A DNA stretch of 64,000 bases from positions 62,001 through 126,000 of the forward strand of contig NZ_FOYT01000006.1 in the NCBI RefSeq assembly GCF_900112175.1. Reading direction: 5' to 3'. Under the pieces are notes generated by a model. It ran no database searches and was not told the origin of the DNA. It saw nothing but the letters and a program-made list of their open reading frames with translations. Positions within the stretch are counted from its first letter, which is position 1. Each line of letters opens with the position of its first letter. Shown one piece after another: positions 47,733-60,332 of the stretch. Source of the stretch: Halogeometricum rufum. Its GTDB lineage: Archaea; Halobacteriota; Halobacteria; Halobacteriales; Haloferacaceae. The translations under genes and the position numbers were made by a program.

Positions 47733-50510
47733 ATGTCCGACCGAGATTGGTCCCTCACGTCCCGACGTACAGTCTTGCAGACAGCAGCCGCCGTTCTCGG
47801 CGGGTCTATCGCCCTCTCGCCGTCGGCGGCGGCCGCCGCCGCGCCGCCGTCGGAGCGGTTCTCCGAACGTTGGTGGGCGGTCGTCCAGAATTCAGAGGAG
47901 GAGACGACGGTTCCGACGCTGTTCGTCCTCGACGACGAGAGCGAGACGACCGCACTCGAAGAGATGGGTGTGAAGAACCTCAGGACGACGACGGCGACGG
48001 AGTCGCCCGCCGCGTACGGGGAGGTGCCGGTGAACTCGCAGGTCCTCTACTCGCTCGCCCGAGGCGACGTGGCGCGGACGGTGCTGTACGCCCCCGGCGC
48101 GAACCCCTTCTGGAAGCTCGAACACTATCCGAACCGCGTCTTTCCGGAGCCGTCGGCGGCGACCGGCTACGTCGACTACGCCGAGTTCGAGCAGGGAATC
48201 GACCGACTGGTGGACGAGCACGGTGACATGCTGCGCTACCGGTCGGTCGGCGAGAGTCCCGGATGGCTCGACCGGGAGGCGCGGTCGACGGCGCCGAAGG
48301 ACGTCTGGGTCGTCGAACTCACGAACGACGTTCGAGACCGCGAGTCGTTCGCGGAGAAGCAGAAACTGGTCGTCACGCTCGGCATCCACGGCGACGAGCG
48401 GTCGGGCGCCGAAGCCGGCATGCGCCTCGTCGAGGACGTCGTCTCCGGCGACGCGGAGTCCGTCGCGAGCGCGCTGGACGACGTCGCACTCGTGTTCCTG
48501 TTCCCGAACCCGGACGGGTGGGCGGCGAAGTCGCCGCTCCTCGTGGACGGTCGGTTCCGGGACGCGAACACGTTCAAGCGCTCGACCGCGACGGGGAACG
48601 ACCCGAACCGGCAGTATCCGACGGCCGGCTGGATCGACCCGGCGCACCACCCGGCCGAACCCCGCGGGCGGAATCTGCGAGACGACGGAGCGGGCGTCGA
48701 CGAGGACGTGCCCGAGGAACCCGTCGACTACACGGAGCAGGTGCCCGACTCGCTGGCTGTCGTCGAACACCTTCGGTCGTACGAGAACGTGACCTGGGCC
48801 GCCGACCTCCACGGGATGTTCGCGTCCGAGACGATGATGGAACTCCTGAGCGCAAACCACGCGTACGACTTCGCCGACGCGCACGCGATATTCGAGTACG
48901 CGGACCGGCTCCGAGGCCGACTCGACGAGGAGTTGGCACCACTGCTCTCGGAGCGCGAGTCCGTCCTGACGGAGGAAGTGAAGGCGATGCAGGAGGCGTA
49001 CGGGATGGACGAACGGCCGCCGGTCCCGACCGAACCGTTCGCCGCCGGGACGATATTCGACGCGGTCGGCTACTCGACGACGGGCGGTCTCGTCTCGTGG
49101 CTCGCACTCTCGGAGGAGGAGGGCGGCGTCGGCGCGCGGTCGGTGGCCTTCGAGATGGCACTCGACAACCGCCTCCGCGGGAGCATCGAGTACCGCCCCG
49201 ACCTCCTCGACCTGCAGATGGTCGGTCACCGGACGGCGATAGAGACACTCGTCGAGGCGGCGACGGCGGAGGCAGACGCGGCGGTGGAGACGCCGGACGG
49301 CGAGACCACCGCCTTCGTCGCGGCGGACGCCCTGCGCGCGTCGTCGGCGGACCTCCCGTTCGTCACCGACGACGGCGAGACGACGGACGAGGGAGACGAC
49401 GAACGAACGAGCACCGCGGAGTCGGTCACCGTCGCTCCCGACGACACGGCGACGCGGACGGTCACCGTCGCCGAGGAGACGCACAGCGTCTCGGGTCGCG
49501 TTCGCGCGGCGTCGGGCGCCGTCGACGTCGACCTGCTCGACCCCTCGGGCTCGCTCGTCAGGACGTACGAGGGCGAGACGCTCGCGACGAGCGCGAAGCG
49601 GACGATTTCGTTCGTCGTGAGCGACCCGACCCCCGGCGAGTGGACGCTACGCCTGACGAACGGCGTGGGCGGCGAGGCGACCGTCGACGTGCGAACGACC
49701 GCAGCGACCGGCGACGGGTCGCCGAACCCGCTGACGACGCTCGGCTACGAACAGCGTCAGTACGAGGTGACGCCGCTGGACGTCGTCGGCCCCTACCGGT
49801 CGTTCCTCGACCGTTCGGATGCGGTGACGACGGTGACGACTGACGACGTCTCGAACGGCGCACTCGACGGCGTCGACAACCTCGTGGTTCCCCACGGCGT
49901 CGGCACCGACCGTGACGCGTACGTCTCGGCGATAGACGACTTCGTCGCCGGCGGCGGGAACCTGGTCCTCACGGACGCCGGGGTCGAACTCCTCGGTGAC
50001 CTCTCGGCCGACCCGGCCGGGAGCGTCGACGCGGACGCGGTGTCGCGGGCGACGACCACGACGGCCGCCGTGACGGAACGCGTCGACGACAGCACCCTCC
50101 TCTCGGGGACGACGCCGATTCAGCGCGAACTCGCGAAAGCGGGAGCCCTCGGGTACGTCGTGGACGCCGCCGCCGCGGAGACGCCGATGTACCTCGTCGA
50201 CCCCGCTCCCTTCGAGTCCGACGGCGGGGACGTCGCCGGGTGGCGGGTCGTCCGTCGACAGTCCGACGGCGGCGAGTCTGACAGCGGCGAGTCCGAGGGC
50301 GACGCGAACGCGTCGGAGTCGACGGCGAAGAAAGTCGCGCTGGGGACGCTCTCCGGAGACGCCGGCACCGTCCACGTCGTCGGGAGTCTCCTCCCCGCGC
50401 CGTCCCAGTCGAACCTCCACCCGTTCGGCCTCCAGGGGCACGCCCCGTCGCACTGTGGGTACACCGTGCTCGCGAACGCGCTCGGACACGCGACGCCGCC
50501 GAGCGAGTGA
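47733..50510 (+). CDS. Tat-exported M14 zinc carboxypeptidase with C-terminal accessory domains
   Basis: 925 residues. Tat signal: SRRTVLQTAAAVLGGSIAL. The M14 catalytic set is His219 and Glu222 in GIHGDERSGAEAG (HxxE), His360 in DLHGMF and probably Glu474 in VAFEMALD. After about residue 560 come a PPC/CARDB-like beta domain (VSGRVRAASGAVDVDLLDPS) and a flavodoxin-like or ThuA-like domain (YVSAIDDFVAGGGNLVLTDA). The protein is much longer than a simple M14 domain. It should trim peptides outside the cell. Single gene. Confidence 0.88.
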   Translation: MSDRDWSLTSRRTVLQTAAAVLGGSIALSPSAAAAAAPPSERFSERWWAVVQNSEEETTVPTLFVLDDESETTALEEMGVKNLRTTTATESPAAYGEVPVNSQVLYSLARGDVARTVLYAPGANPFWKLEHYPNRVFPEPSAATGYVDYAEFEQGIDRLVDEHGDMLRYRSVGESPGWLDREARSTAPKDVWVVELTNDVRDRESFAEKQKLVVTLGIHGDERSGAEAGMRLVEDVVSGDAESVASALDDVALVFLFPNPDGWAAKSPLLVDGRFRDANTFKRSTATGNDPNRQYPTAGWIDPAHHPAEPRGRNLRDDGAGVDEDVPEEPVDYTEQVPDSLAVVEHLRSYENVTWAADLHGMFASETMMELLSANHAYDFADAHAIFEYADRLRGRLDEELAPLLSERESVLTEEVKAMQEAYGMDERPPVPTEPFAAGTIFDAVGYSTTGGLVSWLALSEEEGGVGARSVAFEMALDNRLRGSIEYRPDLLDLQMVGHRTAIETLVEAATAEADAAVETPDGETTAFVAADALRASSADLPFVTDDGETTDEGDDERTSTAESVTVAPDDTATRTVTVAEETHSVSGRVRAASGAVDVDLLDPSGSLVRTYEGETLATSAKRTISFVVSDPTPGEWTLRLTNGVGGEATVDVRTTAATGDGSPNPLTTLGYEQRQYEVTPLDVVGPYRSFLDRSDAVTTVTTDDVSNGALDGVDNLVVPHGVGTDRDAYVSAIDDFVAGGGNLVLTDAGVELLGDLSADPAGSVDADAVSRATTTTAAVTERVDDSTLLSGTTPIQRELAKAGALGYVVDAAAAETPMYLVDPAPFESDGGDVAGWRVVRRQSDGGESDSGESEGDANASESTAKKVALGTLSGDAGTVHVVGSLLPAPSQSNLHPFGLQGHAPSHCGYTVLANALGHATPPSE

Positions 50511-50738: not shown

Positions 50739-51263
50739 ATGTCCTACAACGCGGCGAACCCGCTCGACAACGCGTTCGAGTTCGACCTCGATAGTCCGCT
50801 GACGGCCTACTGGCTCGCGCTCCTGCGCGTCGTCACGGGCTGGTGGTTCTTCCACGCCGGCGTGACGAAACTCATCGAGGACGGACTCGCCTTCACGTAC
50901 GGGCCGGCCTACCTGCAGCAGATGACGGGGACGGCGCTGGGTCCCATCCCGGTCTGGATGGGGAACAACCTCGGACCCCTCATCCAGGCGGGCGTCCCCC
51001 TCGGCGAGACGCTCATCGGACTGGGGCTGATGGTCGGCGCGCTGGTGCGACTGGCCTCGTTCTTCGGGGCGGTCTTCATGACCCTGTTCTGGGTCGGCAA
51101 CGCCGGCTTCGGCCACGGGCTCGTGAACGGCGACCTGATGGGCCTGCTGCTGTTCGGGACGATGATGGTGCTGGCGACGGGCCGGTACTTCGGGCTCGAC
51201 GCCATCCTCGAACAGACCACGCTGGTGAAACGACACCCGAAACTGCGGTACCTGCTCGGTTGA
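50739..51263 (+). CDS. DoxX-family (DoxD-like) membrane protein
   Basis: 174 residues, four helices. LALLRVVTGWWFFHAGVTKL and GVPLGETLIGLGLMVGALVRL are the DoxX-family marks. Some relatives are the DoxD subunit of thiosulfate:quinone oxidoreductase, but most haloarchaeal copies have no proven role. The start is supported by GAGGTGAG seven bases upstream. It forms an operon with the small membrane protein that follows. Confidence 0.85.
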   Translation: MSYNAANPLDNAFEFDLDSPLTAYWLALLRVVTGWWFFHAGVTKLIEDGLAFTYGPAYLQQMTGTALGPIPVWMGNNLGPLIQAGVPLGETLIGLGLMVGALVRLASFFGAVFMTLFWVGNAGFGHGLVNGDLMGLLLFGTMMVLATGRYFGLDAILEQTTLVKRHPKLRYLLG

Positions 51264-51277: not shown

Positions 51278-51571
51278 ATGAACACGCAAACCGACATCGT
51301 CGACAAAGTGGCGTTGGCACTGAGCGGTGCCCTGGTAGTCATCGGCACCGCGGTACTGGGCACCGTGGAGATACTCGCGGGACAGCCCTACGGTGCGGCC
51401 CCGGTGACGAACGAGGCGGGCGAAATCGTCGCGACGCCCGCCGTGGACCCGGTCATCCGCACGGGCGTGGTGCTCGCCGGACTCGCGGTGCTGCTGCTGT
51501 GGGGCGTCTACAGAGCGGCCGCGGCCGAGGAAGCACCCGAACGCGAGCGTCGTGACGTCACCGCCGACTGA
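51278..51571 (+). CDS. Small two-helix membrane protein of the DoxX operon
   Basis: 97 residues: helix about 10-33, a polar loop (GQPYGAAPVTNEAGEIVATP), helix about 63-83 and a charged C-terminus. Preceded by a strong ribosome-binding site and 14 bases from the DoxX stop. Likely a partner of the DoxX protein; function unknown. Confidence 0.75.
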   Translation: MNTQTDIVDKVALALSGALVVIGTAVLGTVEILAGQPYGAAPVTNEAGEIVATPAVDPVIRTGVVLAGLAVLLLWGVYRAAAAEEAPERERRDVTAD

Positions 51572-51685: not shown

Positions 51686-52663
51686 TCACTTCTGGCCGTA
51701 ACTCGCGACGTGGTGCTCCATGACGGTTCGCATCCCCCGGACGAGGCGGGCGACGTCGAAGCTCTCGATGTCGTATCGCTCGCCGAGTGCGTCGCGGTAT
51801 CTGCTCTCCCACTCCTCCTCGAACCGGTCGGCGACCCCGTTCTCGCGAATCGCCGCGATGGCGCGTTCGGGGTCGTCGTCGGTCGTGACGATGTCGCGTT
51901 CGAGAGCCTCGACGACGACGCCCGCCGTGTAGTCGTCCTCGTACAGTTCGCGTTCCCACGTGGTCACCCAGTTGCCGATGCGGGCCATCTTCTGCAGGTC
52001 CATGAGGAGACTCCGAAGTTGGCCGAGTTCCGTCTCGTCGAAGTCGGGCGTCCACATGAGGTCGATGCCCGCGTACGGGAACATCACCATGTTGAACGGC
52101 CCGTGGTGACGGGACTCCGCGAGGTTGGCTATCTCGCGGTTGTCGTTGAGGACGCGCGCGTAGTCCATCGCGTTCAGCGCCTGCCGAACGTCGAACTGGA
52201 ACACGTCGCGACGCGCCTCGTAGCACGGAGCGTCCGTTAATCGGCCCTTAACGCGGGTCCAAAGCTTCTCGGCGAAGCGGAGGATGTCGGTGTCGACGCC
52301 GGGCGCGTCGTAGCGGACGGACTCGGGCGCGTGCGGCAGTCGACGCGCCTGTTCGAACGTCTCCTCGTCGCCGAAGTGGTCGGCCAAGTCGTCGAGGACG
52401 GTGATGTACATCGTGAACACCGTCTTCGTCGTTTTAACCTCCTCCAAATCGGCAGACGGGACGCACGGAAGCGTGAACGCGTCGAACAGGTTGTGGATCC
52501 ACTTCCACAGGAACCGGTCTCTGTCGCCGACGCGGCGGTCGTACTCGTCGGACAGTTCGACGACGCACTGCGGCAGTTCGGTCTTTCGGACGGTTTCGAT
52601 ACACTCTGCGTGGTTCCCCCCAAGGATACCACCGGACTGTTGGTATGCTGCTCTCCCCGACAT
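51686..52663 (-). CDS. Class I terpene-synthase-like protein
   Basis: 325 residues, nearly all helical. It carries both metal-binding motifs of class I terpene synthases: an Asp-rich DDLAD at 91-95 within MYITVLDDLADHFGDEE, and an NSE-type triad N231, T235, E239 in RIGNWVTTWERELYEDD, followed by basic and acidic residues as in active enzymes. The length is that of bacterial mono-domain cyclases. It should ionise a prenyl diphosphate (geranyl, farnesyl or geranylgeranyl) and may cyclise it; product unknown. A GTATTAATC box 28 bases before the ATG gives a leaderless promoter. Divergent from the Bat-type regulator. Confidence 0.78.
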   Translation of the reverse strand: MSGRAAYQQSGGILGGNHAECIETVRKTELPQCVVELSDEYDRRVGDRDRFLWKWIHNLFDAFTLPCVPSADLEEVKTTKTVFTMYITVLDDLADHFGDEETFEQARRLPHAPESVRYDAPGVDTDILRFAEKLWTRVKGRLTDAPCYEARRDVFQFDVRQALNAMDYARVLNDNREIANLAESRHHGPFNMVMFPYAGIDLMWTPDFDETELGQLRSLLMDLQKMARIGNWVTTWERELYEDDYTAGVVVEALERDIVTTDDDPERAIAAIRENGVADRFEEEWESRYRDALGERYDIESFDVARLVRGMRTVMEHHVASYGQK

Positions 52664-52686
52664 ACCCGGATTAATTTAGTGCTAAC

Positions 52687-52695
52687 GTATTAATC
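52687..52695 (-). promoter_or_regulatory. TATA box of the terpene-synthase-like gene
   Basis: GATTAATAC on the minus strand, centred 28 bases before the ATG at 52663. It lies in the 187-base divergent region shared with the Bat-type regulator gene. Confidence 0.55.
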
Positions 52696-52850
52696 TTCCC
52701 ACTTAATGTTCGTATTTTACAGAAATTCAGTGATTAGAGAAGTTATTTCTATCCTGTCGGTCTGGGGTTGCCACTATGTTCAGGTATTCTTGAATATACG
52801 TTACGTTCGGATACGACCACTTATTGCCGGCGAACGTTAGGACACTCCCA

Positions 52851-55610
52851 ATGACCGTCGAACCGACCGCCTCGCAGTTCTCGGTGGAGGTGCGTCTCGT
52901 CGGCGACGACCACCGACCCGAGGAGGTCAGCGAGTACCTACTCGCGGACGAGAGAATCGAACTCCGGTCGAACCGCGAGGCCGAGGCGGATGCCGAACCC
53001 GAGGTGGACTGCATCGTCTGCACGAGTGTCGACGCCGTCGCCGCCGCGCCCGACGGGTCGGTAGTCGTCGCCGTCCTCACGGACGCGAGCGACGAGGCGG
53101 TGTCACGCGCGTACGAGGCGGGCGCGATGGCCGTCGTCCCATCGGACGAGACGCTGCCAGACCGACTGGCGTGGCTCTCGGGTGCGGGCGGACCGGCCGT
53201 CGACGACAGCGTCGACACGACCGACGTCGTGTCGGCCGCCGCCGCCTTCGGTGACGCCGCCTGCGTCCTCGACCGGCGGTGGCGCGTCGTCGAGGCGACG
53301 GACGCGTTCGCCGCCGTCGTCGGCGACGTGGACGCTCCGCCGGTCGGCGAGAACGTCTGGGCGGCGAGTCCGAACGCGCGCGCGACCGCAGAGCAGTGCT
53401 GGCAAGCCGTGATGACCGGCGACGCCGAGTCGTTCGAGGCGACGCTCCCGGACGGGCGGCGGGTCGCCGCCGACGCCGTCCCGTTGCGCGACGGACTCGC
53501 GCTCCGCTACCGGGACGTGACCGAGCGAACCGAGACGGAGGAGTCGCTGGATCGCTACGAGCGCATCCTGGAGACCATCGACGACGGTATCTACATCCTC
53601 GACGAGAACTTCCGAATCACGGAGGTCAACGAAGCCGTCGTCGAGATGACCGGCTACGACCGGGAGACGCTCGTCGGTTCGCACTCGACGATGCTCGCCG
53701 ACGAGTCCATCATCGTCGAGGCGAGCGAGGTCATCCAACAGATACTCACCGGGGAGATAGCGGACGGGCGCCTCGACGTGGAACTGGAGACGGCCGACGG
53801 AAGCACGATTCCCGTCGAGACGCGCTTCTCCGCGCTCAGTTTCAGCGACGGTACCCACGGGTCGGTGGGCGTCATCCGCGACATCAGCGACCGCAAGCGG
53901 TACGAGCGGACGCTGACCGCACTCAACAGTTCGGCTCACGAACTATTCGAGTCGCAGACGAAGCCAGCCGTCGGCGAGACGGTCCTCGGCACCGCGACGG
54001 AGATTCTCGAACTGGAGTCCGTCGTCGTCTACCTCTACGACGAGGAGGCCAGCCGACTCCGACCGGTGGCGTGGGAGGGTGAGGGCGAACCGCCGTCCAT
54101 CGGACCCGGCGACGGCGCGCTCTGGCGGTGCTTCGCCGAGAGCGAGTCTGTCCACCTCGGAACCGACGTGACGACGCTCGACCGCTGGGACGAACTCACG
54201 CCGGCCGACCCCGCCGACGCCGCCGCCGAGAGCGTCGCCATCCCCCTCGGCACTCACGGCGTCCTCGCGACGTCGTCGTCTGGCGAGGACTCCCCGCGGG
54301 GGCAGTCGACGCTGACGCACCTGCTGGCCGCGAACGCCGAGGCGGCGCTCGACCGGGTCGCCCGGTCGCTCGAACTCGAACGTCGCAGGGGCGAGTTGGC
54401 GCGACGGAACGAGGAACTGACCAACCTGAACCGCTTCAACGAACTGCTCCGCGAGGTCAACCGGGTGCTCGTCGAGTCCGACTCGCGGGAGGAGATAGAG
54501 CGGGCCGTCTGCGAACGACTCGTCGACGGCCCCTCCATCGCGTTCGCGTGGGTCGGCACGTACGACCGCGTGAACGAACAGGTCGTGCCTCGCGCGTGGG
54601 CGGGCGAGGAGCGCGGCTATCTGGACTGTCTGACGGAGTCGCCCGAGGCGTACGCGTCGGAACCGAGCGTGCGGACGATTCGGACCGACGAGACGACGCT
54701 GGTCGACAACGTCGGACAGGAGATACAGGAACACCAGTGGCGGCGCGACGCCCTCGACAGGGAGTTCGGCTCCGTCGCGAGCGTCCCCCTGACGTACCAC
54801 GAGTTCAGTTACGGTGCGCTGACCGTGTACGCGACGGAACCGAACGCCTTCGACGACGGGACGCAGCTGATGTTCGAGGAACTCGGCGTCACCACGGCGA
54901 ACGCCATCAACGGGGCGGAGGCGAAGGAGTCGCTTCACACCGAGTCGCTCATCGAGTTGGAGATTCGGGTCAGCAGTCAGAACGAACCGCTGCTCCGCAT
55001 CGCACGCGCGCTCGACGGCGAAGTGCAGTTGGAGGGGAGCATCCCGCAGACGGACGGGTCGCTACTCTACTTGACGCTCGAAGGGCCGGACGCCGACGCC
55101 GACACGCTCTCGTCGCTCGTCGTCGTCGAGGAGGTCCGAGAGATAGTCCGACGCGACGACGAGACGCTGGTCGAGGTGCAACTGGCGGCCGAGACGCTTC
55201 CCTCGCGACTGGCCGACCTCGGCGGTGCCGTCCGGACGCTCACCGCGACGCCGGAGGCGGTGGACGTCGTCGTCGAACTCTCGCCGGGGTCGGACGTCCG
55301 CGAGTTCGTCGAACACCTCCGCGAGTCGTACCCCGGGACCGAACTCAGCGCCAAGCGGACCCGCGAACGCTCCATCGAGACTCAGCAGTCGTTCCGCGCG
55401 AACCTCGGCGAGTCGCTGACCGACCGACAGTTCGAGGCGCTCCGAACCGCCTACTTCTCGGGCTACTTCTCGTGGCCGCGCGAACAGACGGCCAGCGAAC
55501 TCGCGGCGTCGCTGGACGTCGCCCAACCGACGTTCTCGCGCCACCTCCGCGTCGCCGAGCGAAAACTCCTCGACAATCTGCTGGCCGACGAGCGCCGAAC
55601 ACGTCTCTGA
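52851..55610 (+). CDS. Bat-type multi-sensor regulator (PAS, GAF, HTH-10)
   Basis: 919 residues from ATG at 52851. Domains in order: a degenerate receiver-like N-terminus (about 12-115), a PAS domain (about 130-235), a second PAS (about 240-360; DDGIYILDENFRITEVNEAV and VIRDISDRKRYE), two GAF domains (about 360-510 and 540-695), a Bat-specific domain (about 705-850) and a C-terminal HTH-10 (LTDRQFEALRTAYFSGYFSW, ASLDVAQPTFSRHLR). This is the layout of the Halobacterium bacterio-opsin activator, which senses light or oxygen and controls retinal-protein and carotenoid genes. It is divergent from the terpene-synthase gene. Confidence 0.92.
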   Translation: MTVEPTASQFSVEVRLVGDDHRPEEVSEYLLADERIELRSNREAEADAEPEVDCIVCTSVDAVAAAPDGSVVVAVLTDASDEAVSRAYEAGAMAVVPSDETLPDRLAWLSGAGGPAVDDSVDTTDVVSAAAAFGDAACVLDRRWRVVEATDAFAAVVGDVDAPPVGENVWAASPNARATAEQCWQAVMTGDAESFEATLPDGRRVAADAVPLRDGLALRYRDVTERTETEESLDRYERILETIDDGIYILDENFRITEVNEAVVEMTGYDRETLVGSHSTMLADESIIVEASEVIQQILTGEIADGRLDVELETADGSTIPVETRFSALSFSDGTHGSVGVIRDISDRKRYERTLTALNSSAHELFESQTKPAVGETVLGTATEILELESVVVYLYDEEASRLRPVAWEGEGEPPSIGPGDGALWRCFAESESVHLGTDVTTLDRWDELTPADPADAAAESVAIPLGTHGVLATSSSGEDSPRGQSTLTHLLAANAEAALDRVARSLELERRRGELARRNEELTNLNRFNELLREVNRVLVESDSREEIERAVCERLVDGPSIAFAWVGTYDRVNEQVVPRAWAGEERGYLDCLTESPEAYASEPSVRTIRTDETTLVDNVGQEIQEHQWRRDALDREFGSVASVPLTYHEFSYGALTVYATEPNAFDDGTQLMFEELGVTTANAINGAEAKESLHTESLIELEIRVSSQNEPLLRIARALDGEVQLEGSIPQTDGSLLYLTLEGPDADADTLSSLVVVEEVREIVRRDDETLVEVQLAAETLPSRLADLGGAVRTLTATPEAVDVVVELSPGSDVREFVEHLRESYPGTELSAKRTRERSIETQQSFRANLGESLTDRQFEALRTAYFSGYFSWPREQTASELAASLDVAQPTFSRHLRVAERKLLDNLLADERRTRL

Positions 55611-55766: not shown

Positions 55767-56051
55767 ATGAACCAGGCACGAAGTGGTAGTTCGGAGACGG
55801 TTGACGAGGACCTCGACTGGCAGATTGTGACCACGGTGGCGGACGCGAAGGGCGTGGACCCGCTGGAACTCGGCGAACGACTGCACGACGTCGTCGACCT
55901 GGACGCCGTCAAGAACCTGTTCGTCGGGATGCCCGGCGAACAGTCGCTCGTCGAGGGGCACGTGAGCTTCACGTTCGACGGCTGTGAGGTCGTCGTGGAC
56001 GACCAGTGGAACGTGGACGTCGTCCCGCCGAGCAACGTGGCCGCCGACTGA
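55767..56051 (+). CDS. HalOD1 output-domain protein
   Basis: 94 residues made up almost wholly of the haloarchaeal HalOD1 domain: IVTTVADAKGVDPLELG, LHDVVDLDAVKNLF and VSFTFDGCEVVVDD. HalOD1 is a predicted output domain in haloarchaeal signalling, often stand-alone. An alternative ATG four bases upstream, in another frame, gives only an eight-residue peptide. It lies 156 bases after the Bat-type gene, which suggests a shared signalling theme. Confidence 0.85.
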   Translation: MNQARSGSSETVDEDLDWQIVTTVADAKGVDPLELGERLHDVVDLDAVKNLFVGMPGEQSLVEGHVSFTFDGCEVVVDDQWNVDVVPPSNVAAD

Positions 56052-56957: not shown

Positions 56958-59900
56958 CTACCCCGAAGGTCGCCGGAGCGCCGTCCACTCCGACACCGAG
57001 GCGAGCGTCTCGCGGACGCGCCTCCGTTCGTCGGCCGTCAGCCCGCAGGCGTCGGCGACGCGGGCGTCGATGCGGGCGTCCAACGTCGCGGCGCGGCGGT
57101 CGAGTGTCGCCGCGCGGCGGCGGTCCCGGGCGCACCTCGCCACCGCCGCGGCGTGCGTCTCGGGGTCCGGGACGCGGAGGGCGCGGAGACGGGTCGCGGG
57201 CGTCGTCTGCGAACTCCGACCGACCGGCCGGAGACCGCAGGCCCGCCGGTCCGTCGCCGTCGCCGCCCCGACGGCGGGGAGCCACGTCGAGAGGACGACG
57301 GCGTCCCGCGGCGACGGTGCGGCGAACCGGAGCACGTCCCGCGTCTCGCGTCCCGCGTCCGTCTCGTACGTCGCCCGGAGCGTCAGTTCGTCGCCCGCCT
57401 CTCGAACCGAGAGGTCGGCGATTCGGAGCCCCGGCGTCTCGGCGCGGTGCGAGCGCGAGAGACCGTCGTCCACCACCTCCGGGTCGAACCGGTCGAGCGG
57501 GACCGACGCGTCCTCGAACTCGACGACCGAGGCGACGTCGTCGGCGAGCGACGCCCGTTCGCGACCGACGGCGAGTCGTCGGTCGACCAACGAGACGAGT
57601 TCGTCGTCGACCGACCCCGACCAGACGGGGAGCGTCTCGTAGTTGCGCTGGTTCTGCTGCGGGAACTGCGCGGGGTAGGCGTTCCGCCGGACGTAGTGGT
57701 AGTAGTTGTACACCCGCGAGTTCAGCAGGCCGAGGAGGTGCTTCAGCAGTCGCTCGTCGTCCGCGGGACCCGCCGAGCGGTGTACGGGGTCGACGTGGAC
57801 GTCGTACACCGACTTCAGGTTGGCGAGTCCCTCGACGTCGAGCGTTCCGACGAGGAAGCGTCCGGTCTGTCGACAGAGCAGTTTCGGCGGGTCGTACACG
57901 GCCTTCGAGACGGCCTCGGCGTCGACGTGTCGAATCTCCCCCCGTCGGAGGGCGTACGGCCGAACCGCCGACCCGGGGACGAGTGGCCGCGTCCCGTCCG
58001 CCGGCACCTCGTGGACGCTGTCGTCGCGCTTGCCGAACTCCTCGCCGCGGGCGACGGACCCCACCGCCTCGAGCGGGTCGCGGCGTTCGAGTTTCCGGAA
58101 GATGCCCTCGGCGACGTCGTCGCGCAGGAGTTGGAAGCGGGCGTACGCCTCTGACGCCACCGTCTCCCGGCTGAGACGCCCGTACTCGAACGAGTCGGCC
58201 CGCGCGGCGACCGCGAACGCCTCCGCGTCGCCGAACCACGTCCGGATGGCGTTCTTCCCCGTCGCGTCCGCCCCCGTGTCCGTCTCCGGGGCGCAGACGA
58301 CGACGGCGGCGCCCTCGTTCGCGTCGGCGAAGACGGTTCCCACCCGGAGGAGGTGCGTCACGCCCCCGGCGTCGATGAGGAACCGGCGGGCGGGGGCGGC
58401 CGAGAGTCGAACGAGGAGGGCGTCGGGGACGACGAGCGCCACGCGGCCGCCGGGGGCGAGGCGACACGCCCGTTCGAGGAACGCGGCGTAGAGGTTCGGT
58501 TGGGGGCCGGCGGCGGCTTCGAAGGTTCGCTTGAGGTGAGCCGTCGTGTCGCCGTCGATACGCGCGCTGATGTCCGCGCGGCCGGCCGTTCCCTTCCACG
58601 GCGGGTTGCCGACGATGGCGTCGAATCCGACACCACCGCGTCCGCTGTTCTCGGCGTCGAACACCTCGGCGAACGCCGTCCGCCAGCGAATCGCTCCCGG
58701 TCGGTCCGCCGCGGTGCCGGCGGCGGGGTCGGCGTCGTCCGCGTCCGGGCCGGGGCCGAGCAACGCGTCGCCGCACCGGAGGTGGTCGGCCAACGCGGGG
58801 AGTCGGTCGACGTCCGCCTCGGGCCCGAGCGTCTCGACCAGACAGACCAGTCGGGCGACGGCGGCCGCGGTCGGACTGCGGTCCACGCCGTACAGACACC
58901 GCTCGACGACGGCCCGTCGGACCGACGCGACCGGTTCGACCGGCGCACCCGCCTCGCGCGCCGCCCGCCGAATCCCCGACGCGAGGCGGCGAGCGACGGC
59001 GACGAGGAGCGTCCCCCCGCCCATCGCGGGGTCGGCCACCCGAGCGTCGAGGAGCGACGAGCGGACGGCGGCGACGAAGGCGTCTCCCGCCTCGTCCGCG
59101 GCGTCGTCCCGCGCGTCGTCCGCGAGCGACCCCGCGGTCCGCGCCGCGAGGTACGTCACGACCGAATCGGGCGTGTAGAACGACCCGTGGGCCTTCCGGC
59201 GCGTCGTCCGTCCGCCGGCGGACCGCTCGAACGCGTCGACGAGGCGTTCGTGCACGTCGGCGAGGTGACGAGCGTCCACCGTCCGGTAGTCCACGCCGAA
59301 CCGCCGGCCGTCGCAGGAGACGGTCCCGAGGAGCGAACAGACCCGTTCGAGCGTCTCGTCGGTGAGCGACCGAACGTCGGCGGCCGACGACGGGTCGCCG
59401 ACGCCGGTGGGAGACGACGCCGAGTCGTCGGGCGACGCCCCCGCGGCGTCTGCAGACGGTCCGGTCCCGAACGGCCCGCCCAGCGCCGAGTCGGCAGCCC
59501 CGGCGACCCACTCGCGGAGCGTCTCGCTCCCCGTCGAGTCGAGCGTCGGCCCGCCCCCCGCCGACTCGTCCGCCGTCGGCGCGGCGGCGAGTCGGTCACG
59601 GACGGCCCGGAGGGCGTCCGCGTCGGCGACGAACCGCGGCGTCCCGGTTCGGTCGGCGGCGAACAGGTCGAACGCGAGGCGGAAGGCGACTGCGACCGAC
59701 GCGCCGTCCGACGGGCCGTCGGGGGCCGCGCGGAGCGTCTCGACGGCCGTGACGAACCGGTCACCCAGCGAGGCGCGGACGGACGCCCGGCGCGCCGCGT
59801 CCGCCGACGCGAGGGCGTCGAGGAACGACTCGGCGTCGCCCCCGTTCGCGTCCTCCTCGTCCGCGTCGCCCTCGAACGCCTCGCGCGCGAACAGGGCGAC

Positions 59901-60332
59901 GAAGCGACGGCGGCCGCGGGTCGACGCCGACCCGCCGTCGCCGGCGAGGAGCGCTCGGAGGTCCAGTTCGTGGAACCGCTGTTCGTCCGGGTCGCCGCCG
60001 CCGTACAGACGCCAGTACCGGCCGTCGGTGAGGACCCCCCAGCGGTCCGTCCCGGCGAGTCGCGTCACCAGCGTTCGCGCGGCGGGTTCGCGCCCGTTCG
60101 CGTCGAGTTCGCCCGTCGGAACCGACTCCACGGGAACGTCGCTCTCGGCGAGTCCGAGGGCGTCGGGAACGGAGACCCGTCGGGTCGCCGACGCCTCCCA
60201 CGCCCGTTCGACCGCCGCCTCCCGGTCGGCGAGTGTCGACGCCTCGCGCCGCGAGTCGACGAGCGACGGCAGGTCTACCGCCAGCGTCGGCGTGGCGAAG
60301 CGCGGGTCGGCGACGCGACGGGACGGGGTCAT
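56958..60332 (-). CDS. Eco57I-type DNA methyltransferase, orphan type IIG-like
   Basis: 1124 residues. N-terminal part contains RWGVLTDGRYWRLYGGG, as in Eco57I/PglX-type proteins. The adenine-N6 methyltransferase core has motif I as DPAMGGGTLLVAVA (about 433) and motif IV as FDAIVGNPPWKGTAGR (about 572-585). The C-terminal third looks like a target-recognition region (GSAVRPYALRRGEIRH, YYHYVRRNAYPAQFPQQNQR). No clear PD-ExK nuclease motif was found, and no restriction, BREX or DISARM partner is adjacent. It could be a regulatory methylase or a single-chain restriction-modification enzyme. Confidence 0.85.
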   Translation of the reverse strand: MTPSRRVADPRFATPTLAVDLPSLVDSRREASTLADREAAVERAWEASATRRVSVPDALGLAESDVPVESVPTGELDANGREPAARTLVTRLAGTDRWGVLTDGRYWRLYGGGDPDEQRFHELDLRALLAGDGGSASTRGRRRFVALFAREAFEGDADEEDANGGDAESFLDALASADAARRASVRASLGDRFVTAVETLRAAPDGPSDGASVAVAFRLAFDLFAADRTGTPRFVADADALRAVRDRLAAAPTADESAGGGPTLDSTGSETLREWVAGAADSALGGPFGTGPSADAAGASPDDSASSPTGVGDPSSAADVRSLTDETLERVCSLLGTVSCDGRRFGVDYRTVDARHLADVHERLVDAFERSAGGRTTRRKAHGSFYTPDSVVTYLAARTAGSLADDARDDAADEAGDAFVAAVRSSLLDARVADPAMGGGTLLVAVARRLASGIRRAAREAGAPVEPVASVRRAVVERCLYGVDRSPTAAAVARLVCLVETLGPEADVDRLPALADHLRCGDALLGPGPDADDADPAAGTAADRPGAIRWRTAFAEVFDAENSGRGGVGFDAIVGNPPWKGTAGRADISARIDGDTTAHLKRTFEAAAGPQPNLYAAFLERACRLAPGGRVALVVPDALLVRLSAAPARRFLIDAGGVTHLLRVGTVFADANEGAAVVVCAPETDTGADATGKNAIRTWFGDAEAFAVAARADSFEYGRLSRETVASEAYARFQLLRDDVAEGIFRKLERRDPLEAVGSVARGEEFGKRDDSVHEVPADGTRPLVPGSAVRPYALRRGEIRHVDAEAVSKAVYDPPKLLCRQTGRFLVGTLDVEGLANLKSVYDVHVDPVHRSAGPADDERLLKHLLGLLNSRVYNYYHYVRRNAYPAQFPQQNQRNYETLPVWSGSVDDELVSLVDRRLAVGRERASLADDVASVVEFEDASVPLDRFDPEVVDDGLSRSHRAETPGLRIADLSVREAGDELTLRATYETDAGRETRDVLRFAAPSPRDAVVLSTWLPAVGAATATDRRACGLRPVGRSSQTTPATRLRALRVPDPETHAAAVARCARDRRRAATLDRRAATLDARIDARVADACGLTADERRRVRETLASVSEWTALRRPSG

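What the first reader, a model, noticed from the sequence alone, without database searches (positions are those of the whole stretch)
51686..55610. Terpene-synthase-like gene divergent from a Bat-type sensor-regulator
The 325-residue protein has both DDLAD and an N-T-E triad with correct spacing, so it looks like an active class I terpene synthase, a group little described in haloarchaea. The gene on the other side of a 187-base promoter region encodes a PAS/GAF/HTH-10 protein of the bacterio-opsin-activator type, a family known to control retinal and carotenoid genes. Together they suggest a light- or oxygen-controlled isoprenoid product other than carotenoids.
Basis: partly seen in the sequence, partly recalled or inferred. 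Interest (0 to 1): 0.62.

Follow-up and report, generated by a model that had tools for sequence, protein, structure and literature searches.

The report
Sensor-linked terpene synthase in haloarchaea
This gene belongs to a widespread but unannotated family of terpene-making enzymes in salt-loving archaea that keeps turning up beside, and once fused to, environmental sensor proteins, so these microbes probably make an unknown terpene on cue.

Summary
The 325-aa ORF (51686-52663, minus strand) is a class I terpene synthase-like protein. The second Asp of DDxx(D/E) and the whole N-T/S-E triad are kept in 130 of 130 aligned relatives; AlphaFold gives pLDDT 94 and the best Foldseek PDB matches are mostly terpene synthases. 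Pfam misses the window protein, but 70 of 99 dereplicated relatives hit PF19086 weakly (best 7e-8). The family occurs in 120 of 391 Halobacteria genomes, and rarely in other Halobacteriota, Planctomycetota and Chloroflexota.

The sensor link is not chance. 48 of 120 haloarchaeal loci have a Bat-type or PAS-histidine-kinase gene within 1.5 kb, at about 20 times the density seen 5-9 kb away. Partner type follows the enzyme tree, TPS-linked Bats cluster among paralogs, and HalOD1 completes a TPS-Bat-HalOD1 module in 29 loci. One genome has an in-frame REC-HalX-TPS fusion; planctomycete copies sit beside giant kinases. Sensor-controlled terpenoid synthesis is the best reading. Substrate, product and signal are unknown; light or oxygen control is not shown, since this regulator is one of 28 BAT-domain matches in its genome.

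The parts
51686..52663 (-). class I terpene synthase-like gene, 325 aa
   Evidence: motifs invariant in relatives, AlphaFold pLDDT 94.3, Foldseek, relatives hit PF19086
52379..52393 (-). DDLAD, residues 91-95, aspartate-rich metal-binding motif at the end of helix 70-96
51947..51973 (-). NWVTTWERE, residues 231-239, N-T-E metal-binding triad in helix 210-241
   Evidence: lines up with RLSNDLASYERD of Sat1646 (PDB 7e4n)
52664..52850 (.). 187-bp divergent promoter region; a block next to the TPS start (AAGTGGGAAGATTAATACGTTA and nearby) is conserved in four related loci
52851..55610 (+). Bat-type sensor-regulator (PAS, GAF, GAF, BAT, HTH_10); alternative start TTG 52824
   Evidence: linked Bats form clades
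55767..56051 (+). stand-alone HalOD1 protein, 94 aa, third member of the TPS-Bat-HalOD1 module
   Evidence: PF18545 4.3e-16; conserved with the TPS-Bat pair in 29 of 41 Bat-containing loci

Best explanation
The gene encodes a catalytically competent class I terpene synthase. Mg2+ held by D91/D92 and N231/T235/E239 would ionise a prenyl diphosphate that haloarchaea already make (FPP or GGPP) and release a cyclic or linear terpene. Its expression is set by the divergently transcribed Bat-type sensor-regulator through the shared 187-bp promoter region, together with a HalOD1 accessory protein. The wider family is a sensor-coupled terpene synthase family whose partner varies by clade: Bat-HalOD1, PAS-histidine kinase, REC-HalX fusion or giant multidomain kinase. 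Shown here: motifs, predicted fold, conserved linkage, clustering of the linked regulators, one fusion. Inferred: activity, substrate, binding of Bat at this promoter. Unknown: signal and product.
For: Catalytic residues kept in 130 of 130 relatives; 70 of 99 relatives hit PF19086 and three hit PF03936; pLDDT 94.3; Foldseek matches to terpene synthases; family in 120 of 391 Halobacteria genomes; sensor genes 0.179 per kb-bin at 0-1 kb against 0.005-0.013 at 5-9 kb; linked Bats form clades apart from paralogs; partner type follows the TPS tree; HalOD1 conserved with Bat in both gene orders; REC-HalX-TPS fusion L080; methyltransferase or transketolase-C fusion and giant kinase neighbours in planctomycetes; P450 neighbour in a Chloroflexaceae contig.
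Against: No enzymatic data. The window protein itself has no Pfam hit. Foldseek E-values are modest (about 1e-4) and prenyl diphosphate synthases also appear in the list. An RY pair near the C-terminus and the upstream pyrophosphate-sensor Arg usual in bacterial enzymes are not among the conserved columns. 37 of 120 haloarchaeal loci have neither sensor nor hydrolase within 1.5 kb. No single shared Bat-binding site was found.
Confidence: 0.72

Rival explanations
1. The enzyme makes a terpenoid signal that the linked PAS/GAF sensor itself detects: a synthase-receptor pair, not merely an enzyme under sensor control.
For: The recurring partner is a sensor protein of several unrelated architectures, and one synthase is fused to a receiver domain. 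In most haloarchaeal loci no conserved tailoring enzyme accompanies the synthase.
Against: Divergent regulator-enzyme pairs are the ordinary layout of regulated biosynthesis. No ligand data. Methyltransferase and P450 partners in bacteria fit ordinary terpenoid biosynthesis.
Confidence: 0.2
2. The fold has been reused as a non-catalytic or differently acting protein, for example a prenyl diphosphate binder or phosphatase that reports isoprenoid status to the sensor.
For: Coupling to signalling proteins; canonical bacterial pyrophosphate-sensor and RY residues not conserved.
Against: Both metal-binding motifs kept in 130 of 130 members, which a non-catalytic reuse would not require; fusion or adjacency with methyltransferase, P450 and transketolase-C partners.
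Confidence: 0.1
3. The neighbourhood is a coincidence of many Bat and kinase genes in haloarchaeal genomes; the enzyme has no regulatory tie to them.
For: 11 to 36 BAT-domain matches in each of five genomes, 28 in this one.
Against: Sensor-gene density drops about 20-fold away from the TPS gene. Linked Bats from several genera form their own clades, and linkage survives changes of gene order.
Confidence: 0.03

Closest known systems
Bacterial and fungal class I terpene synthases (PF19086; PDB: T-muurolol synthase 9hqm, geosmin synthase N-domain 5dz2, ent-kaurene synthase BjKS 4xlx, aristolochene synthase 5in8)
   Same: helical fold, DDxx(D/E) and N-x3-T/S-x3-E motifs; weak profile hits for most relatives
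   Different: 12-16% identity to solved structures; window protein below Pfam detection; no conserved C-terminal RY pair; persistent sensor partners
Archaeal terpenoid biosynthesis reported in a preprint (10.1101/2024.01.29.577750, cited as reference 48 in PMC12797696)
   Same: title reports terpenoid biosynthesis in archaea found by structure-based prediction
   Different: text not held, so overlap with this family is unknown; I do not know of a sensor link being reported there
Bat-type regulators (bop/brp cluster of Halobacterium salinarum, PMC2253796; census PMC5847659)
   Same: PAS-GAF-BAT-HTH_10 architecture; in Halobacterium, Bat induces bop at low oxygen
   Different: partner is a terpene synthase gene, not bop, brp or crtB1; belongs to TPS-linked clades among many paralogs
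REC-HalX response regulators of haloarchaea (PMC5847659)
   Same: REC-HalX module in L080
   Different: in L080 it is fused to a terpene synthase domain; the census text does not contain the word terpene
Methyltransferase-terpene synthase pairs of bacteria (2-methylisoborneol type; from own knowledge)
   Same: planctomycete relatives fused to or beside SAM methyltransferases (L214, L213)
   Different: haloarchaeal members have no such partner

Membership tests
Class I terpene synthase superfamily | aspartate-rich motif DDxx(D/E) | tested here: met
   D92 130/130, D91 126/130, third acidic position E or D in 130/130
Class I terpene synthase superfamily | NSE/DTE triad N-x3-S/T-x3-E | tested here: met
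   N231 and E239 130/130, T235 T or S in 130/130; aligned with the same motif of Sat1646
Class I terpene synthase superfamily | all-helical class I fold with motifs on facing helices | tested here: met
   prediction only: pLDDT 94.3, DDLAD at the end of helix 70-96, triad in helix 210-241, Foldseek; inter-motif distance not measured
Class I terpene synthase superfamily | ionisation of a prenyl diphosphate | not testable with these tools
   needs enzyme assay
Pfam PF19086 (Terpene_syn_C_2) | profile match over the curated cut-off | tested here: inconclusive
   window protein no match; 70 of 99 relatives match at E up to 0.01, best 7.1e-8; L080 and L008 below cut-off
Canonical bacterial type I terpene synthases | pyrophosphate-sensor Arg upstream of the triad and C-terminal RY pair | tested here: not met
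   neither is among the conserved columns of 99 members; so it is not filed in this subgroup
Isoprenyl diphosphate synthases | two DDxxD motifs | tested here: not met
   second motif position holds N-T-E
Bat-type regulators | BAT and HTH_10 domains with PAS/GAF sensor domains | tested here: met
   BAT 142 bits, HTH_10 69 bits, PAS and GAF over cut-offs
Bacterio-opsin activator Bat proper | orthology to the bop/brp regulator and light/oxygen response | not tested
   28 BAT-domain matches in the genome; Halobacterium Bat was not placed in the tree; no LOV-type NCRFLQ motif seen in the sequence

The most novel reading that the evidence does not exclude
Haloarchaea and some bacteria use a terpene as a regulated signal: a class I terpene synthase is the output of dedicated sensory systems (Bat-HalOD1, PAS-kinase, REC-HalX fusion), and its product acts on the paired PAS/GAF sensor or on neighbouring cells, an archaeal terpenoid signalling circuit.
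Probability: 0.2. Interest if true: 0.88.

Novelty: new variant of a known kind. Interest (0 to 1): 0.67.

Why it matters
Haloarchaea are known for isoprenoid lipids and carotenoids, not for cyclised terpenes. A terpene synthase family present in about a third of sampled species, and called hypothetical protein in all six plasmid records found here, would open an archaeal terpenome. The persistent coupling to sensory proteins, including a receiver-domain fusion, gives a direct handle (regulator deletion plus GC-MS) on which signal controls it and whether the product is itself a signal.

Tried and rejected
PF19086 against the own genome found nothing, but it rang in no control genome either, so that result is empty. 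Single-sequence and 14-row profile searches of PDB sequences gave nothing useful. Long apparent N-terminal extensions of several relatives (for example L060, L077, L078, L085, L104) were dismissed as untranslated upstream frame because they are rich in Arg/Pro/Ser and show no domain. L080 (REC-HalX) was kept as a real fusion; L008 may be another, but its contig ends inside the putative receiver domain. A search for short words shared by the promoters of 18 divergent loci gave clade-specific blocks and no single Bat site. Literature searches found no held paper on class I terpene cyclases of archaea; the one relevant preprint is not held. An isoprenyl diphosphate synthase was considered and rejected because the second DDxxD is absent.

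Full report
Check. The ORF, motifs and gap are as described. The regulator is a PAS/GAF/BAT/HTH_10 protein with likely start ATG 52851. The window synthase has no significant Pfam, NCBIfam or PDB sequence match.

Family. A search of 391 Halobacteria genomes found the family in 120 of them and in 39 of 86 genera. In a sample of 197 genomes of the same phylum, members also appear in families outside that class. They are rare in Planctomycetota (3 of 246) and in the phylum of the Chloroflexaceae hit (1 of 301). In 130 aligned members D92, N231, W232, W236, R238, E239 and D244 are invariant, T235 is T or S, and the third acidic position of DDxx(D/E) is always E or D. 70 of 99 dereplicated members hit PF19086 (best 7.1e-8) and three hit PF03936. 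A profile of the 99 members has as its best PDB sequence match Sat1646 (7e4n, E 0.079, not significant alone); the alignment puts RIGNWVTTWERELAEGD on RLSNDLASYERDIRSGD. In the plasmid collection all six matches are annotated as hypothetical protein.

Fold. With 99 sequences AlphaFold2 gives mean pLDDT 94.3 and pTM 0.92, all helical; DDLAD ends helix 70-96 and the triad lies in helix 210-241. Foldseek lists mostly class I terpene synthases (aristolochene, geosmin N-domain, BjKS, epi-cubenol, T-muurolol, hydropyrene), with E near 1e-4 and TM up to 0.62/0.65. Prenyl diphosphate synthases also appear.

Linkage. Loci of up to 20 kb were taken around 120 haloarchaeal hits. A Bat-type or PAS-HATPase gene lies within 1.5 kb in 48 of 120 loci, and in 34 of 91 after dereplication at 85% identity. 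Sensor genes per kb-bin fall from 0.179 at 0-1 kb to 0.02-0.03 at 1-5 kb and 0.005-0.013 at 5-9 kb. Five genomes hold 11 to 36 BAT-domain matches each, so chance adjacency would be a few per cent. In a tree of linked Bats with the 30 paralog loci fetched from five genomes, one large clade holds only TPS-linked Bats, and the window Bat groups with those of its relatives; lower-scoring paralogs were not included. Partner type follows the TPS tree: Bat clade, PAS-kinase clades, MBL-hydrolase clade. The linkage survives rearrangement: divergent TPS/Bat-HalOD1 in some groups, Bat-HalOD1-TPS on one strand in others. HalOD1 accompanies 29 of 41 Bat-containing loci. In five MBL-clade loci the Bat-type hit lies 1.3 kb away behind another gene and may be unrelated.

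Fusions and distant relatives. L080 carries REC (8e-17), HalX (7.7e-7) and the terpene synthase domain in one 496-aa protein; this is a single genome. In Planctomycetota the neighbours are protein-kinase-AAA-GAF-histidine-kinase proteins (L211, L214) or a GAF-PAS-HK-REC protein (L223). In L214 the synthase is fused to a SAM methyltransferase, in L211 to a transketolase C-domain. In other Halobacteriota, PAS-histidine kinases lie next to the gene (L215, L219, L221). A methyltransferase gene adjoins it in L213 and L220 and a P450 gene in L012. These partners favour real terpenoid chemistry.

Mechanism. Shown: motifs, predicted fold, linkage, fusion. Inferred: Mg-dependent ionisation of a prenyl diphosphate, and sensor control of expression. 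[quoted passage not shown] The PAS sequences of the window Bat show no NCRFLQ LOV motif.

Novelty. Terpene synthases are well known in bacteria, and a preprint cited in PMC12797696 reports terpenoid biosynthesis in archaea (text not held). I found no held paper that describes this family or its coupling to sensors. I rate it a new variant of a known kind: known enzyme class, unrecognised archaeal family, new and repeated physical coupling to signal transduction.

Noticed in passing
L080 8790-10277: In-frame fusion of a receiver domain, HalX and the terpene synthase in one haloarchaeal genome; L008 may be a second case, cut by the contig end.
   Followed up: partly
L074, L076, L084, L086, L088-L134 (mostly family f4 genomes): In one large haloarchaeal clade the synthase is paired, usually divergently, with an MBL-fold hydrolase gene, often followed by a conserved 150-176-aa protein without a Pfam domain (L092 7737-8267).
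   Followed up: partly
L211 7698-14778; L212; L213 8999-10816; L214 8892-16509: Planctomycete relatives: four copies in one genome, synthase-methyltransferase and transketolase-C-synthase fusions, and adjacent giant Ser/Thr-kinase-AAA-GAF-histidine-kinase proteins.
   Followed up: partly
50739-51263 (+): DoxX-family membrane protein and a 97-aa ORF (51278-51571) lie beside the synthase in this window; the pair was not seen beside it in the two closest relatives.
   Followed up: partly
56958-60332 (-): 1124-aa protein with an NPPW motif, looks like a type IIG-style adenine methyltransferase/restriction enzyme (read by eye).
   Followed up: no
47733-50510 (+): 925-aa M14 zinc carboxypeptidase-like protein with a twin-arginine-type N-terminus.
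   Followed up: no
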